42,179 nt of DNA from Leptolyngbyaceae cyanobacterium M33_DOE_097 (GTDB taxonomy: Bacteria; Cyanobacteriota; Cyanobacteriia; Leptolyngbyales; Leptolyngbyaceae). Shown one piece after another: positions 22,251 to 28,338 of this stretch; the first letter of the stretch is position 1; every line of letters begins with the position of its first letter. Under the pieces are notes generated by a model that was not told the origin of the DNA, searched no databases, and was given only the letters and a program-made list of their open reading frames with translations. Made by a program: the position numbers and the translations under genes. Where the stretch lies: positions 1 to 42,179 of the forward strand of contig DVDV01000249.1 in assembly GCA_015296075.1 (NCBI GenBank), read 5' to 3'.

Positions 22251-23117
22251 ATGAGAATTGGATCTGAAGAACACAAGCAGCTATTGTGCGACTGGTTCAT
22301 GAACAGTCACTTACTGTATGAACCCGAAGAACTTCCCTGGCCCCAATTAGATGGCACAACTCTGGATCGGTTACGCGGTATTCCTTTTTGGGATGAGGCT
22401 CTGCGCACTGAAAGTAGAGCCGGTCAAATGCTCGATATGTATGCTGCAACTGTTAAAGATCCGACGATCCGCGAGGCGATCGCCCTGCAAGGAAGGGAGG
22501 AAGCTCGACACGGACGCGTGATTCAGTATTTGATTGACCGTTATAACGTCAACGTACCGGATAAGGAGGCACCTGAAATTCCTGCCGATCTGGAGCCTGA
22601 ATTTATCCGGTTTGGCTATGGTGAGTGTTTTGACTCATTCTTTGCCTTTGGCCTGTTTGAGATTGCGCGTCAGAGTAAACTCATGCCCGAAGCGCTGTTC
22701 ACCATTTTTGACCCCATTCTCGATGAAGAAGCGCGTCACATGACTTTCTTCATTAACTGGATTGCCTACAAGCAAATTCAAGAAGGCAAAGGCTGGTTGC
22801 GCCCGTTTAACTCGCTCTGGCAATACTCTGGGGCTTTGCAACGTCGCCTTGATAACCTCACAGGTATCACGAAGAAGAAAAAGAAGGAAAGTTCTTCTCA
22901 AAAGGGCTTTACGGCAACGGGGGTGAAGTCGTTTACGCTCAACCTGACGTTGGAGAAGTTTTTGGAAGTCTGCATTGCAGAAAATGCGAAACGTATGAGC
23001 AAATATGACGATCGCCTCTTACGGCCTGAGTTTTTGCCTGTCTTGTCTGGGGTTGCTTATCAAACGCTCAAACTGCTTCCGAAGAAGAAGCCTAGCCCGG
23101 TTGCTGATGCGGCGTAA
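22251..23117 (+). CDS. Ferritin-like (possible diiron) protein
   Basis: A 288-residue soluble protein with metal-ligand-like motifs of a four-helix ferritin-like fold: ESRAGQMLDMYAA, then GREEARHGRVIQYL, then GECFDSFFAFGLFEIAR, then LDEEARHMTFFINW. The paired ExxRH helices and the two isolated Glu are in the order expected for a carboxylate-bridged diiron site. After about residue 205 comes a Lys-rich segment (TKKKKKESSSQKG) and a C-terminal helical tail. GGAG at 22241-22244, six bases upstream, supports the ATG at 22251. Which reaction it performs, if any, is unknown; rubrerythrin-like or oxygenase roles are both possible. Confidence 0.75.
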   Translation: MRIGSEEHKQLLCDWFMNSHLLYEPEELPWPQLDGTTLDRLRGIPFWDEALRTESRAGQMLDMYAATVKDPTIREAIALQGREEARHGRVIQYLIDRYNVNVPDKEAPEIPADLEPEFIRFGYGECFDSFFAFGLFEIARQSKLMPEALFTIFDPILDEEARHMTFFINWIAYKQIQEGKGWLRPFNSLWQYSGALQRRLDNLTGITKKKKKESSSQKGFTATGVKSFTLNLTLEKFLEVCIAENAKRMSKYDDRLLRPEFLPVLSGVAYQTLKLLPKKKPSPVADAA

Positions 23118-23129
23118 AGGATGGTGAGG

Positions 23130-23525
23130 GGCGAGTTTTGCCTTGGCATCTTGATACTGGTTGGTTTTTGTAGCTTTAGGACTGGGATTTAGCGGAGATT
23201 TGGGGGCGGCGGAGCCGCAAGATCGGGGGACTTCCCCCCGTTCCCCCGCTCGTAGGGGCCTCACTCCCCTACAACCCCCGCAAGGTGGTGCGGGTGGGTT
23301 TTGAATGGTTAGCTAGCCAAACGGTACGGGTTGCAAGTTTGACGCTTTGATCGCTGATCGAAGGTACGGGTAAGGTGAGGCGGAGGTTACGAAGGGCGAT
23401 CGCCCTGACTAAGGCTGTTTGAACTAACGAACTGCTTTTTGTGTAGAAGGCAAAATGTCGCTTAAGCCTGCGCAGCAGGGTTCCCACCCCACCCTTAAAC
23501 CCTTTGATCCAACACTGGAATCAGC
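23130..23525 (-). repeat. Dispersed mosaic repeat, most complete copy
   Basis: Read on the minus strand this ~400-base block contains all three modules in order: a head (CCAGTGTTGGATCAAAGGG ... AACCCTGCTGCGCAGGCTTAA), a middle (GTCAGGGCGATCGCCCTTCG, TAACCTCCGCCTCACC) and a G/C-rich tail at 23191-23290 (GGGGTTGTAGGGGAGTGAGG ... CGGCTCCGCCGCCCCC). The head recurs at 5.1 and 40.5 kb, the middle at 4.1, 5.2 and 7.4 kb, and the tail at 7.5 kb. The 537-base gap between the ferritin-like gene and the helicase is almost entirely repeat. Confidence 0.8.
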
Positions 23526-23526
23526 A

Positions 23527-23606
23527 ACACCTTCCGCAGGGGAGGCGAGGGGAGGCGGTTCGGCCCCTCCCGGGGGTTTGAGGGCGTGCCCCCAAGGGCT
23601 GCTGGC
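23527..23606. repeat. Second G/C-rich palindromic repeat next to the mosaic repeat
   Basis: Contains nested palindromes, GGGGAGG...CCTCCC around 23545-23572 and GGGGGTTTGAGGGCGTGCCCCC around 23572-23594. This resembles the short 'GGGGGTTT...GCCCCC' intergenic repeats of many cyanobacteria. It separates the mosaic repeat from the 3' end of the helicase gene. Confidence 0.55.
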
Positions 23607-23654
23607 TCGGAATCGATTGCTCTAGAGAAAGCCTTTTTTACGAGAGAAAACTTG

Positions 23655-25139
23655 TCACTCATCATCCCAGTCGATCGCCTGTTCTGCGGCTCTCGGCATC
23701 GTTGAGGGTGGCACTGCGTAGAGGTTAGGAACCAGTTCTAATTGATCAGACGGCGGGCGCGATCGCTTCGGTGTTTCGCCCTTGCGCCGACGTGAAACAT
23801 TTTCCTCGGCAGTGTCTTCAGCAATGATCTCGTAGAGCAGCGCTCGCTTGTTGGGGTCATTCCCCTTTCTGAGAATGCGGCCTAAACGCTGAATGTACTC
23901 ACGGGTTGAACCTGTGCCTGACAGAACGATCGCCACACTGGCATCTGGCACATCCACCCCTTCGTTTAACACCCGCGAGGCTACCAGCGTGCGATAGTCA
24001 CCTTGCTTAAACCGTTGCAGAATGTCGTGGCGTTCTTTAACCCCCGTCTGGTGCGTAATTGCCGGAACCAAAAACGCTTCAGAGATGCGATAAACCGTGG
24101 CGTTGTCATCCGTGAAGATTAGCGTGCGTTCAGGGTGGTGATTTCCCAGTAAGTCAGCCAACACCCGCAGTTTACCCTCCGTGCCAAAGGCGATCGCCCG
24201 CGCCTCACGGTGAGCTAACATCGCTTTACGACCGGCTTTAGAGCGGGCACTCGCTTGCACAAATCGCTGCCAGCCCTGCACACTGCCCAAAAAGATGTTG
24301 GAGTCTTGCAAAAACTGGTTCCGCAGGCGAATCAACTCATCATATCGTTGCCTTTCTTTGAGCGAGAGACGCACCTTGATTTGCACCGCTTCGTGTTGTG
24401 CCAACGTCGAGCCTGACAATTCTGCCGCAGTACGACGATAGACTTCTGCCCCGACCAAGCTTGCTAAATCAGCGTGCCTGCCATCAGTCCGTTCGGGCGT
24501 AGCCGTCAACCCCAGGCGGTAAGGGGCGATCGCGTACTCCGCAATGACCCGATTAAAATCACTCGGCAGGTGATGACACTCATCAAAAATCAGCAGTCCA
24601 TACTGATTGCCCAACGATTCCGCGTGAATTGCGGCACTGTCATAGGTAGAAATCAAAATCGGCGTGCGATCGCGCGAGCCCCCTCCCAACAACCCAATCT
24701 CTGCATCGGGGAAAGCCGCCAGCAGGTGAGCATACCACTGGTGCATCAGATCCAGGGTTGGCACCATAATTAACGTGCTGCGCTGGGTCGCCTGCATCGC
24801 CAGTTGCGCCAGGTAGGTCTTTCCGGCGGCAGTTGGCAGCACCACTAGCCCCTTGCGTCCGGCTTGCCGCCAGGCATCGAGTGCCTCCTGCTGATGAGGA
24901 TAAGGCTGCATCTCCAGACTGGGCACCAGCGTAATTGATTGAAAAGCTTTGGCATTGTCTTGCAGCTCAATGCCATCGGCTCGCAACGCCAAAACCACAT
25001 CCCGATAGTGGATTGCCGGAATTCTAAAACGCTCAATCCGATCATCCCAAACGGCATAGTCCATCCACTCTTTGCTGCGCGGGGGTGGATGCAAAATCAA
25101 TGTGCCGCGATCATAGGTCAGTGTTGGGGTACGCGGCAT
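23655..25139 (-). CDS. XPB/Rad25-like superfamily 2 DNA helicase
   Basis: A 494-residue SF2 helicase of the bacterial XPB type. An N-terminal ~75-residue domain precedes motif Ia/Q (PYPHQQEAL), Walker A PTAAGKT (102-108), DECHH (186-190), TAT (212-214) and, in the second RecA domain, TLIFTDDNATVY, ASRVLNEGVDVPDASVAI and QRLGRILR (417-424). XPB proteins unwind DNA in repair; archaeal and some bacterial forms work with a Bax1/DUF790 nuclease, which is not next to this gene. The ATG at 25139 is clear. A charged tail after residue 450 (SRRRKGETPKRSR) is unstructured. Role in repair is inferred from the family. Confidence 0.9.
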   Translation of the reverse strand: MPRTPTLTYDRGTLILHPPPRSKEWMDYAVWDDRIERFRIPAIHYRDVVLALRADGIELQDNAKAFQSITLVPSLEMQPYPHQQEALDAWRQAGRKGLVVLPTAAGKTYLAQLAMQATQRSTLIMVPTLDLMHQWYAHLLAAFPDAEIGLLGGGSRDRTPILISTYDSAAIHAESLGNQYGLLIFDECHHLPSDFNRVIAEYAIAPYRLGLTATPERTDGRHADLASLVGAEVYRRTAAELSGSTLAQHEAVQIKVRLSLKERQRYDELIRLRNQFLQDSNIFLGSVQGWQRFVQASARSKAGRKAMLAHREARAIAFGTEGKLRVLADLLGNHHPERTLIFTDDNATVYRISEAFLVPAITHQTGVKERHDILQRFKQGDYRTLVASRVLNEGVDVPDASVAIVLSGTGSTREYIQRLGRILRKGNDPNKRALLYEIIAEDTAEENVSRRRKGETPKRSRPPSDQLELVPNLYAVPPSTMPRAAEQAIDWDDE

Positions 25140-25327
25140 CAGCGCAGCATCCCCATGCGATCAGCCCGACCGACCCACTGCAAAATTTTCACCGCGATCG
25201 CCCCTGAAACGTCGCATTCATTGTAATGCAACCTTCAGCAAATAGGCGAGTGCAACGGACTTTGAGCCGCGATCGCGTACTGATGTATTGGCGCTTTGCC
25301 GTTCAAATCTTTTTACTGACGCGGAAG

Positions 25328-25482
25328 CTACCGTGTACACACAAGTCAAGCTGATCCTCCCCAGCCCTCCTTAAAAAGGAGGGAGCTAAATTAAATTCCG
25401 TTAAAGTCCCCCTTTTTAAGGGGGATTAAGGGGGATCCCATCAGTGTTTAGCATGTTGATGAAAGATCTGTGTACACCGTAG
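25328..25482. mobile_element. 155-base MITE-like element with terminal inverted repeats and target duplication
   Basis: Terminal inverted repeats CTACCGTGTACACA (25328-25341) and TGTGTACACCGTAG (25469-25482) match at 13 of 14 positions. Immediately outside them lie direct repeats GACGCGGAAG (25318-25327) and GATGCGGAAG (25483-25492), 9 of 10 identical, as expected for a target-site duplication. The interior is made of palindromes (CCTCCTTAAAAAGGAGG at about 25371-25387; CCCCCTTTTTAAGGGGG). No coding sequence is present. It occupies part of the 503-base gap between the helicase gene and the exported protein gene. Confidence 0.75.
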
Positions 25483-25642
25483 GATGCGGAAGAGGGCCAT
25501 CATTCAAAAGACTGAAATGAGCTTAAATTTCCTTGTCTCAGCATCCCCAAAATGGGGGGACTTTTAGGGATTACGCTCAATTTAGGACGAGGCTAAAGCC
25601 ACACGATCCTGGCGGTTGTAGCCCGGAAGTCAAAGAACAAGT

Positions 25643-26053
25643 TTATTCGCTAACCTTCGCACTCGGGCGAATCGGACCGTTATAATCAACCGAAATTTCC
25701 CAATTGCTGGGATTCACGGTCACAGCACTTTCAACCGTTGGCGCTTCACCAGGGGCACCTCCAGTAAACGTAAACGTCCAGGTGCCATTTTCATTTGGCG
25801 TGCAGGGGGTCTGTCCGATCGAACCATGCATCGAAGCTTCTGCTCGGTAAACTCCAATTCCCCCATTGGCCTCCTCAGCCGCTTGACGGGCCAGGTTTTT
25901 AGCGCGGCTCAAATTTGTAATTTGACCACCGGGGCTGTCACTGGCAGAGGCTTTCACCACACACGCATTTGCTGACTGTTGAGCCTTTGCGGCTAGAGGA
26001 GTCAGGCCAACGATCGCCAGCGCGACGCCAAAGACTAAAGGATTGAGTTTCAT
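25643..26053 (-). CDS. Small exported protein of unknown function
   Basis: A 136-residue protein with a clear signal peptide (MKLNPLVFGVALAIVG..., cleavage after AKAQ or AKA). The mature part has two Cys (in ANACVVKA and QTPCTPNE) that could form a disulfide, an Ala/Arg-rich helix (SRAKNLARQAAEEANGG) and a beta-rich C-terminal half (TWTFTFTGG, VTVNPSNWEISVDYNG). I do not recognise the family. It lies 110 bases downstream of the histidine kinase on the same strand and might be co-transcribed, but a separate promoter in the gap is equally possible. The ATG at 26053 begins the signal peptide. Confidence 0.75.
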   Translation of the reverse strand: MKLNPLVFGVALAIVGLTPLAAKAQQSANACVVKASASDSPGGQITNLSRAKNLARQAAEEANGGIGVYRAEASMHGSIGQTPCTPNENGTWTFTFTGGAPGEAPTVESAVTVNPSNWEISVDYNGPIRPSAKVSE

Positions 26054-26163
26054 TAGCAAAATCGCTCATTCAAAAGACCACTCTTCCCTTTCTACCCAAT
26101 TCTGATACCATCCGTATATTCTTTAAGATTGAATCTAGAATCACCACTAGAAGCGCGATCTCT

Positions 26164-28338
26164 TCAGGTTGTTTTGCTGATGTCTGGGTGTCGCACCGGA
26201 ATTTCAATGATAAAGTCAGCGCCTTTCCCTGGCTCAGAGACGCACCGCAGTTCGCCCTTATGCTTCTCACAAATAATCTGGTAGCTAATCGAGAGTCCTA
26301 ACCCAGTGCCCTGACCGATCGGTTTAGTGGTAAAGAAAGGGTCGAACAGCTTCGACAAATGCTCTTTTGAGATACCCGCACCATTGTCACGAATAGAGAT
26401 TCGCACCATTGGTACTTTAGTATTGCCGTCCCCAAAGCGAATCACCGTATTCCCATTAACTTTGCCATGCAACAATTGCGTTGTGATCATAATGGTCGGC
26501 GGCTCAGCACTAATATCATCCGGCGATCGCTTGGCGGTGTACTTGTCTAAGGCATCAACCGCATTGCTCAAAATATTCATAAACACCTGATTGAGCTGTC
26601 CGGCGTAGCACTCGACCAGCGGCAACTCACCATAGTGCTTCACAACCTCGATCCCAGGATGGTCAGGCTTGGGCTTTAGACGGTTTTGCAAAATCAAAAT
26701 GGTGCTGTCGATCCCGTCGTGAATGTTGACCCGTTTCATCTCCGCTTCGTCAAGTCGCGAGAAATTGCGAAGTGAGAGGACGATTTCACGAATGCGATCG
26801 GTGCCGATTTGCATCGACGCCAGCATTTTTTGCAAGTCCTCGATCAAAAACTCCAGCTCAATTTCTTCGCGAAACTGCTGAATTTCAGGATCGTTGTCAC
26901 CGTACTTGCGATCGTACAAATCGACCAGGTGCAGCAAGTCCTGCGTATAGTTCACCGCATGGGGCAGGTTGCCGTAGATAAAGTTGATCGGATTATTGAT
27001 CTCGTGGGCAACGCCTGCCACCAACTGCCCCAGACTTGACATCTTCTCGGTTTGAATTAGTTGCGCCTGCGTCTGCTGCAAGGCTTGTAAGGCTTGTTCA
27101 GAGCGTTGCATTTCCTTACGCAGGCGGCGTTCATTCACCGTTACCTGACCCAAAAGCGCATAAAACGAAATTGTCAGCCGTCCCAATTCATCTTCACGGC
27201 TCATCAACTCCTCACTCTTGGCATTCGTTTCAGCCAGGCGATTGCACTCATCCATAATCGGTTGCAGGCGACGGTTGAGATGCCGCACAAACAGCGCCAC
27301 CACCACCCCTTGCAAGAGCGAAGCCCCCAGCACCGAGCCGAGCGTGCCCAACGCCGTGAAGCGAATGACTGGCCCCAACACTACCGATTGCGGCACCTCC
27401 GCCATCAGCACCCAATTGTTACTGGGAATCTGCTCAAACGCCCAAAAAGATTTTGCCCCGTTGGCGTCGCGCCACTGCACAATGCCACTTTTTTCACCGC
27501 GACTAAAACTCTGCTGAATGTGGTTCCACAACCCCTCGTAGTTGCTCAACTGCCGAAAGGGTTTAAGGGCGATCGCCTGCTTAGGATCGGGGGGATACGC
27601 GATCAAATTACCCTGGGCACTAACCAACACAAAGTTGCCAGCATCTCGCATAACGCTGCGGTTTAGCTCACCACTCAAAAAGCCCAGTTCAAGGTCTTGG
27701 CTCAGCACGCCCAACAGTTGTTTCTTTTCGCTGTAGACGGGCAGTGTGTAGCTGGTGGTGACCAGATCACGGGGCGGTTCGAGCGTGGTTTCCCGATAGC
27801 TGACTGGCTCTAGCCAAACAGGTCTGCCTGCTTTAATCGGCTGCGTAAAATACTCTTCCTGGTAAAAGGAAGGGTCTGACTCACCCCCTTTCGCCACGAT
27901 CGCCCGATCTTTAGGCCGCCGAATTGCGTAGGGGTAAGCATACTGGCGATCGGGAATCAGCAAGCGATTGTTGGGGGGTTGCCCAAAGCCTAACCCGGTT
28001 GCCAGGGGCGATGTTTGCAAAGCCCGCCGGATCAGATCGACATACACCTGTTCGCGTTTTTCGCCAGAAGCATGCAGCGTGACAAGTGCATCAGCAAGTA
28101 AATGGGTCGAGTTTTGAAAAGTCTCAAATTCGCCACCCAGATTTTGCGCTTTCACCTGCAGGCTAGACAGCAACTCGGCTTCTGACTGACGGGCCAGTTC
28201 ACGGTAAGACAGCAAGGATGTTAACCCTAAACCCACTAAGGAGCCACCCAAAATGGAAAGAAAGAGCCGTGACCCAACCGATCGCAAGAGAGAAAATTTC
28301 CACTTGCGTCGAAGCGAGCCTGGGGCAGAGGACTGCAT
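26164..28338 (-). CDS. Membrane sensor histidine kinase (dCache-HAMP-HisKA-HATPase)
   Basis: A 724-residue two-component sensor. A first transmembrane helix (about 22-45) is followed by a periplasmic double-Cache-like domain (about 46-325, with the WLEPVSYRETTLEPPRDLVTTSY and LGVLSQDLELGFLS strands), a second helix (about 326-352), HAMP (about 352-405) and a coiled coil. The dimerisation domain has the phosphorylated His445 in VAGVAHEINNPINFI, and the ATPase domain has the N box (NILSNAVDAL), G1 (DNGAGI), F box (FDPFFTTKP) and G2 (GQGTGLGLSI). AAGGAGA about six bases before the ATG is a strong Shine-Dalgarno. No response regulator gene adjoins, so it is an orphan kinase. The ligand is probably a small amino-acid-like molecule by family analogy only. 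Confidence 0.93.
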   Translation of the reverse strand: MQSSAPGSLRRKWKFSLLRSVGSRLFLSILGGSLVGLGLTSLLSYRELARQSEAELLSSLQVKAQNLGGEFETFQNSTHLLADALVTLHASGEKREQVYVDLIRRALQTSPLATGLGFGQPPNNRLLIPDRQYAYPYAIRRPKDRAIVAKGGESDPSFYQEEYFTQPIKAGRPVWLEPVSYRETTLEPPRDLVTTSYTLPVYSEKKQLLGVLSQDLELGFLSGELNRSVMRDAGNFVLVSAQGNLIAYPPDPKQAIALKPFRQLSNYEGLWNHIQQSFSRGEKSGIVQWRDANGAKSFWAFEQIPSNNWVLMAEVPQSVVLGPVIRFTALGTLGSVLGASLLQGVVVALFVRHLNRRLQPIMDECNRLAETNAKSEELMSREDELGRLTISFYALLGQVTVNERRLRKEMQRSEQALQALQQTQAQLIQTEKMSSLGQLVAGVAHEINNPINFIYGNLPHAVNYTQDLLHLVDLYDRKYGDNDPEIQQFREEIELEFLIEDLQKMLASMQIGTDRIREIVLSLRNFSRLDEAEMKRVNIHDGIDSTILILQNRLKPKPDHPGIEVVKHYGELPLVECYAGQLNQVFMNILSNAVDALDKYTAKRSPDDISAEPPTIMITTQLLHGKVNGNTVIRFGDGNTKVPMVRISIRDNGAGISKEHLSKLFDPFFTTKPIGQGTGLGLSISYQIICEKHKGELRCVSEPGKGADFIIEIPVRHPDISKTT

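What the first reader, a model, noticed from the sequence alone, without database searches (positions are those of the whole stretch)
25318..25492. MITE-like element with intact inverted ends and a 10-base target duplication
A 155-base non-coding element has 14-base inverted ends (13 matches) and is bracketed by GACGCGGAAG and GATGCGGAAG. Both hallmarks of transposition are visible, with only one base of divergence in each, which points to a fairly recent insertion. Its interior is the 'CCCCCTTTTTAAGGGGG' palindrome often seen in cyanobacterial intergenic DNA, so this copy may reveal how that widespread repeat moves.
Basis: seen in the sequence. Interest (0 to 1): 0.5.

Follow-up and report, generated by a model that had tools for sequence, protein, structure and literature searches.

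The report
Cyanobacterial MITE moved by ISSysp3-type transposase
A 155-base stretch between two genes is a small jumping element without a gene of its own, very likely moved by the transposase of a known type of cyanobacterial insertion sequence that prefers to land in the middle of DNA palindromes, and it carries inside it a copy of just such a palindrome.

Summary
Window 25328-25482 is a 155-bp element with 14-bp inverted ends (13 matches) and a 10-bp target duplication (9 of 10). A second copy in the same genome (94%) has its own perfect 10-bp duplication. I found the full-length partner asked for: insertion sequences of 1472-1485 bp in relatives with matching ends and an IS4-family, Tn5-like transposase; all 7 read on the Kovacikia minuta chromosome have 10-11-bp duplications, and the named relative is ISSysp3. 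The window's own genome has no such transposase. Insertions of this group favour the axis of palindromes (35 of 55 score at least 7/10, against 1.1% of random positions), mostly CCCCCTT..AAGGGGG repeats; the window copy is an exception. The interior palindrome is not specific to this element. The same ~85-bp double hairpin lies inside elements with six other or equal end types (47 of 80 sampled copies), and hybrids occur. Core sequences follow their ends rather than their genome, so the repeat travels inside several MITE families, each presumably moved by its own transposase. The MITE assignment is secure; the shared core, and an element that carries its group's own target, are the unusual part.

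The parts
25318..25327 (.). left target-site duplication GACGCGGAAG
25328..25341 (+). left terminal inverted repeat CTACCGTGTACACA
   Evidence: same or one-mismatch end in 1472-1485-bp insertion sequences
25328..25352 (+). left arm; 22 of 25 bases equal the first 25 of either end of the Kovacikia insertion sequence (G012 copy L089: 24 of 25 to its left end)
25353..25437 (.). 85-bp core repeat GATC...GATC with two hairpins; occurs in many relatives independently of this element's ends
25365..25383 (.). hairpin 1 CCCTCCTTAAAAAGGAGGG
25408..25424 (.). hairpin 2 CCCCCTTTTTAAGGGGG, the palindrome type that this group of elements uses as target
25438..25482 (-). right arm, 45 bp
25469..25482 (-). 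right terminal inverted repeat (reads CTACGGTGTACACA on the - strand)
25483..25492 (.). right target-site duplication GATGCGGAAG
23655..25139 (-). flanking gene, 494 aa, helicase-like by its sequence (name recalled, no family scan run); conserved in relatives
25643..26059 (-). flanking gene, 138 aa, function not examined; the element lies between it and the helicase-like gene

Best explanation
[quoted passage not shown] A Tn5-like transposase supplied in trans would bind the outer ~19 bp at each end, excise the element and join it to target DNA cut with a 10-11-bp stagger, giving the flanking duplication. The group favours the axis of palindromes, above all the CCCCCTT...AAGGGGG repeats of cyanobacterial intergenic DNA. 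Its 85-bp core is itself one of these double-hairpin repeats, held between a 25-bp left arm that resembles an insertion-sequence end and a 45-bp right arm. Shown here: ends, duplications, multiple copies, full-length partners in relatives, target preference of the group, and the core in other MITE types. Inferred: that the Tn5-like enzyme moves this copy, that it acted from a now absent element (none is in the assembly), and that the core was acquired once in this MITE lineage.
For: Second own-genome copy with perfect 10-bp duplication. Kovacikia (G006): 11 copies with an intact 455-aa frame and 3 damaged ones, beside many 188-bp MITEs with the same ends (72 forward and 72 reverse end hits, control 0). 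Of 73 end pairs in the fetched loci, 55 have a 9-11-bp duplication and 2 of the others a perfect 12-bp one. Transposase: NCBIfam IS4 family NF033590, 369 bits against a cut-off of 160, for the G034 relative; Tn5 transposase in the PDB at E 3e-32. The named relative ISSysp3 in Picosynechococcus PCC 7002 has ends CTACTGTGTACACACAAGT and a 10-bp duplication. The left arm resembles the insertion-sequence end. Targets: 35 of 55 with palindrome score 7 or more, null 1.1% of 398,600 positions; in a further set from named cyanobacteria 9 of 14. In Kovacikia 35 of 40 joined targets match an uninterrupted repeat elsewhere in the sampled part of the genome.
Against: No transposase of this group in the window's genome; the only match there (C164, 32% identity) has different 47-bp ends. 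The window copy's own target is not palindromic (score 3 of 10). No empty site for this locus. 18 of 73 end pairs show no 9-11-bp duplication; on inspection 4 of these join ends of neighbouring elements and 2 have 12 bp, which leaves 12. Among the long elements, the G034 copy and one of two G007 copies show no duplication. In the further set 33 of 47 permissive pairings show none. The right arm matches the Kovacikia insertion sequence poorly (15-16 of 25), and the left arm matches both of its ends equally (22 of 25).
Confidence: 0.93

Rival explanations
1. The element is moved by a different transposase with overlapping end specificity, for example the intact Tn5-like enzyme of contig C164 in the same genome.
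For: It is the only own-genome match both to the Tn5-type DNA-binding domain and to the Kovacikia transposase, and its frame is open over 478 aa.
Against: It is bounded by its own 47-bp inverted repeats, and no sequence closer than 6 mismatches to the MITE end was found around it. Elements with the MITE's ends encode the ISSysp3-type enzyme.
Confidence: 0.05
2. The block is a functional RNA or a terminator that is conserved for its hairpins; the ends and flanking repeats are incidental.
For: It folds strongly on both strands (z about -6.1).
Against: All 6 Rfam matches lie under half their thresholds (best 27.5 bits against 100); no terminator by a simple scan; the two own-genome copies lie in different flanks with duplications; the same ends bound other interiors in other genomes.
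Confidence: 0.01
3. The core is an independent mobile repeat that inserted into pre-existing MITEs, so the window holds two nested mobile elements of different origin. This does not exclude the best explanation; it adds to it.
For: Core copies occur inside elements with six different end types. 15 of 80 sampled copies have no recognised end on either side.
Against: By eye I saw no duplication flanking the core itself in the copies printed; a transposase of its own was not searched for. In the copies read, the core sits at a similar place within each MITE family, and core sequences follow the end type (0.88 mean identity for same ends in different genomes, 0.81 for different ends in the same genome), so recent independent movement is not seen.
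Confidence: 0.4

Closest known systems
ISSysp3 and its group (IS4 family), Picosynechococcus sp. PCC 7002 plasmid pAQ7
   Same: Ends CTACTGTGTACACACAAGT, 1485 bp from end to end, 10-bp duplication CCCTCTAAAT, transposase 62.5% identical to the G034 relative
   Different: The window element is 155 bp, has no gene, and carries a hairpin core; the target of the PCC 7002 copy is not a CCCCC palindrome by eye
Tn5/IS50 (IS4 family)
   Same: Transposase homology. The window's left end equals the recalled Tn5 outside end at 13 of 19 bases; its right end equals the recalled inside end at 10 of 19, but also the outside end at 9 of 19
   Different: 10-11-bp rather than the recalled 9-bp duplication; strong palindrome preference; the cyanobacterial enzymes seem to be read in two frames
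ISRm22 (IS4 family) in Sinorhizobium meliloti REP elements (PMC1525189, passages read)
   Same: An IS4-family element inserted on the axis of repeated palindromes
   Different: 6-bp duplications there; the palindromes are REPs; no MITE carrying the target in the passages read
Cyanobacterial MITEs: those of Anabaena sp. 90 (PMC3542288, passages read) and Nezha (seen only as mentions and citations in other papers)
   Same: Short elements with inverted ends in cyanobacteria
   Different: The Anabaena sp. 90 MITEs were reported without evident end similarity to insertion sequences of that genome; no palindrome-seeking IS4 element in the passages read

Membership tests
MITE | Short element with terminal inverted repeats and no transposase gene | tested here: met
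   155 bp, 14-bp ends; none of the 17 ORFs of 60 aa or more listed for 23000-28000 overlaps 25328-25482
MITE | Target-site duplication | tested here: met
   9 of 10 bp here, 10 of 10 in the second own-genome copy
MITE | Multiple copies at unrelated sites | tested here: met
   Two full copies in the own genome, more in relative G012
MITE of the ISSysp3-type group (IS4 family) | Ends shared with an autonomous element of the group | tested here: met
MITE of the ISSysp3-type group (IS4 family) | Duplication length equal to that of the autonomous element | tested here: met
   10 bp here; 10 or 11 bp in 7 of 7 long Kovacikia copies and 10 bp in ISSysp3; none seen for the G034 copy and one of two G007 copies
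MITE of the ISSysp3-type group (IS4 family) | Autonomous element present in the same genome | tested here: not met
   Only a 32% relative with other ends; the genome is a 437-contig draft. Not strictly required of a MITE
MITE of the ISSysp3-type group (IS4 family) | Mobilised by that transposase | not testable with these tools
   Needs an experiment
GTAG-tagged REP / REPIN | 20-40-bp palindrome with a GTAG end (from PMC3733652, passages and abstract start read), associated with a RAYT (recalled) | tested here: not met
   GTAG occurs at the end, but the unit is 155 bp with 14-bp inverted ends and 10-bp duplications; a RAYT was not searched for
Structured RNA family | Match to an Rfam model at its threshold | tested here: not met

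The most novel reading that the evidence does not exclude
The double-hairpin core is a shared module that MITEs of different transposases have each adopted because it serves them, for instance as a safe landing pad or insulator. Elements of the ISSysp3 group then land in the cores of other MITE families and carry a core themselves, so that each jump creates a new target: a self-renewing network of elements that use one another as docking sites.
Probability: 0.2. Interest if true: 0.65.

Novelty: new variant of a known kind. Interest (0 to 1): 0.48.

Why it matters
It ties a small cyanobacterial repeat to a named transposase group and gives a sequence-level account of two things: why CCCCCTT..AAGGGGG palindromes are interrupted (they are the landing site) and one way they spread (as the interior of several MITE families). 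Because Kovacikia minuta holds identical, apparently recent full-length copies, the palindrome preference can be tested directly. MITEs of different end types sharing one core also raise an open question about whether such hairpins are useful cargo or merely passengers.

Tried and rejected
The own-genome Tn5-like gene on C164 was first taken as the mover and rejected because of its different ends. The two G015 elements of 1653-1654 bp with these ends were rejected as autonomous partners: one (L138) is a 324-bp MITE with an ISAzo13-type element inserted; the other (L137) has similar length and was not examined separately. An empty site at the window locus was sought through the flanking helicase-like gene, which matches in 38 of 39 genomes: of 12 loci fetched (one of them the window itself), only G010 shows the 138-aa neighbour within 1.5 kb, by eye, and its intergenic DNA could not be aligned by eye. 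I supposed that cores are homogenised within a genome across MITE types; the test, on 42 chosen copies in 19 genome-by-type groups, went against it: same genome, different ends 0.810 (7 comparisons); different genome, same ends 0.882 (29); different in both 0.810 (135). A 1613-bp element with type D ends in G057 holds an IS630-type gene, but that may be a later insertion, so the transposase of type D is unresolved; types B, C, E, F and G were not assigned either. Types B, D and E have similar end sequences and may be one group. Viral contigs gave no match to the end pattern. The six Rfam hits were all under half their thresholds.

Literature: ten searches. (MITE with Leptolyngbya; four palindrome strings; ISSysp3) found no paper; the titles in the other listings do not name this element. 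Besides the papers cited elsewhere I read only passages of PMC10969869, PMC3733652, PMC11448079 and PMC2246112. Two relevant cyanobacterial papers that I asked for by id are not held. The library holds open-licence papers only, so I cannot say that the repeat or its MITEs are undescribed.

Full report
What is there. The window element occupies 25328-25482. Its ends CTACCGTGTACACA and CTACGGTGTACACA (on the - strand) match at 13 of 14 positions, and it is flanked by GACGCGGAAG and GATGCGGAAG. It lies between a 138-aa gene (25643-26059, -) and a 494-aa helicase-like gene (23655-25139, -) (the second name is my reading, no scan run).

Copies in the same genome. A DNA search of the own genome gave 14 matches, the window included. 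Only one other, C109:995-1149, spans the whole element (94%). It is bounded by the same two ends and by a perfect 10-bp duplication TTTTGTAAGG, and it sits inside another CCCCTTTTGTAAGGGGG palindrome. The remaining 12 cover the 85-bp core (window 25353-25437) or part of it, two of them with 10-12 bases of the left arm.

Two layers. Of 58 genomes (own included) 32 match; in the rows listed, mostly over the core alone (query 35/36-120). The ends therefore define one element and the core is a commoner repeat. The end pattern CTACNGTGTACACANA occurs in 23 of 42 family genomes, with no hit of the reversed control in any of the 42.

The autonomous partner. Genome G006 has 72 forward and 72 reverse end hits. 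Its contig C2 has the length of a Kovacikia minuta CCNUW1 plasmid (1,207,795 bp) on which the G006 insertion sequence matches at 99.9%. Listed pairs are mostly 188 bp from end to end; seven are 1483-1484 bp, and all seven have 10-11-bp duplications. The long ones carry an IS4-family transposase: 11 intact 455-aa frames and 3 damaged copies genome-wide. Four of five intact chromosomal copies compared are identical and the fifth differs by one base. The G034 relative (1479 bp, no duplication seen) scores 369 bits to NF033590 (cut-off 160) and matches Tn5 transposase at E 3e-32. Two G007 copies of 1472 bp were read, one with a duplication. The named relative is ISSysp3 of Picosynechococcus PCC 7002, with ends CTACTGTGTACACACAAGT and duplication CCCTCTAAAT; a Nostoc sp. 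C057 copy has duplication GTTTATTAAG.

Not in the own genome. The only own-genome match to the transposase is a 32% relative on C164. It is a Tn5-like gene with 47-bp ends of its own. G012, which has several full MITEs of the window's type, holds remnants of 53-63% identity without recognisable ends. The MITE is probably an orphan in its present genome; the assembly is a 437-contig draft.

Target preference. I paired ends in the loci then fetched: 73 pairs, of which 55 have a duplication of 9-11 bp (10 bp 30, 11 bp 24, 9 bp 1). Of the 18 without, 4 join ends of neighbouring elements, 2 have a perfect 12-bp repeat and 12 have none or a degenerate one. With flanks joined and the duplication counted once, 35 of 55 targets have at least 7 of 10 complementary pairs about the axis; 1.1% of 398,600 positions in a 400-kb sample of G006 do. 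Most of these insertions (38 of 55) are in G006. The window copy scores 3, so it is not an example of the preference. In 80 of the 117 stretches from named cyanobacteria, 41 loci had candidate pairs; 14 pairings had a duplication and 33 did not (permissive pairing); 9 of the 14 score 7 or more. With 12-bp duplications and loci fetched since admitted there are 60 insertions; 38 have a core-type arm within 60 bp, 35 of 40 in G006, against 26 of 5000 random G006 positions. In G006, 35 of 40 joined targets match an uninterrupted stretch elsewhere in the sample across the junction, which stands in for empty sites.

The core in other MITEs. I read 80 core copies from 23 genomes (one further locus, L075, was dropped because the core motif was not found). 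They were chosen from BLAST hits to the window element and are therefore biased to similar cores; the end types were defined on these data. 47 lie in a pair of same-type ends: ISSysp3 type 9, GTGTTTTAAAAC type 16, AGAGGGTG type 14, ACTGTTTGTAAA type 4, CAGTAGATC type 3, GTGTCAAC type 1. Six from G024 match a seventh type on the left only. Three have different types on the two sides, 15 have no recognised end, and the other 9 a single end. Random G006 positions gave 2 same-type pairs, and 53 with a left end alone or paired, in 3000; at that rate one of the three mixed cases could be chance, and the one in L068 is the least clear by eye. Three of the end types resemble each other, so the number of independent groups may be four or five. 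One G012 locus (L034) shows an ISSysp3-type end inserted in the hairpin of a GTGTTTTAAAAC-type MITE, with the right half replaced as if the two cores had recombined.

A test that went against an idea of mine. If cores were exchanged freely within a genome, cores of different MITE types in one genome should resemble each other. They do not: mean identity 0.810 (7 comparisons), the same as for pairs that share neither genome nor ends (0.810, 135), while the same ends in different genomes give 0.882 (29) (42 copies chosen). Each MITE family seems to have carried its own core for long; mixed elements are occasional.

Mechanism. Shown: ends, duplications, copies, partners, target preference. Inferred: the Tn5-like enzyme acts in trans on the MITE ends. 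The two ends differ beyond base 14 (CACAAGT and CAGATCT), which recalls the outside and inside ends of Tn5; the left end fits the outside end at 13 of 19 and the inside end at 8, but the right end fits the inside end at 10 and the outside end at 9, so the second likeness rests on its last bases only (Tn5 ends recalled). A precedent for an IS4 element on the axis of repeated palindromes is ISRm22 (PMC1525189, passages read).

Not an RNA. The element folds strongly on both strands (z -6.1), as a palindrome would; the six Rfam matches are under half their thresholds and a simple scan calls no terminator.

Verdict. A MITE of a known kind with a clear autonomous relative. The group's taste for palindromes and the core shared by MITEs with different ends make it more than routine, but the shared core still needs an unbiased census and the movement needs an experiment.

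Noticed in passing
L136, L139, L189, L249, L250, L251, first 200 bases of each insertion sequence: The start of the transposase (M[DEN]NPI.. to ..KRG) lies in one frame and the rest (K/QKGA[AS]L..) in the -1 frame, with the change at a run of 4-6 A and 5 G, in Kovacikia, G034, G007, PCC 7002, Nostoc C057 and Acaryochloris: probably a programmed frameshift.
   Followed up: partly
L034 1400-1760 (G012 C11): ISSysp3-type end inside the hairpin of a GTGTTTTAAAAC-type MITE, with the right half apparently swapped by core-core recombination.
   Followed up: partly
L138 495-2147 (G015): A 324-bp MITE of this group interrupted by an ISAzo13-type insertion sequence.
   Followed up: yes
L006-L009 (own genome C402, C367, C333, C243): A second MITE in the own genome with CTCAGTAGATC ends and the same type of core; its transposase is unknown.
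   Followed up: no
own genome C305, C334, C367, C431, C432, C435: Seven ends CTAGGGCGTGTTTTAAAACC; the four read (C334, C367, two on C431) lie near contig ends and are followed by the same bases apart from single changes: probably a multicopy element that breaks the assembly.
   Followed up: no
window 25540-25577: A further CCCCAAAATGGGGG palindrome with ACTTTTAGGGAT beside it, about 60 bp from the MITE: possibly a worn copy of another core type.
   Followed up: no
L096 (own genome C164): Tn5-like insertion sequence with an open 478-aa frame and 47-bp ends that are 94% complementary.
   Followed up: partly
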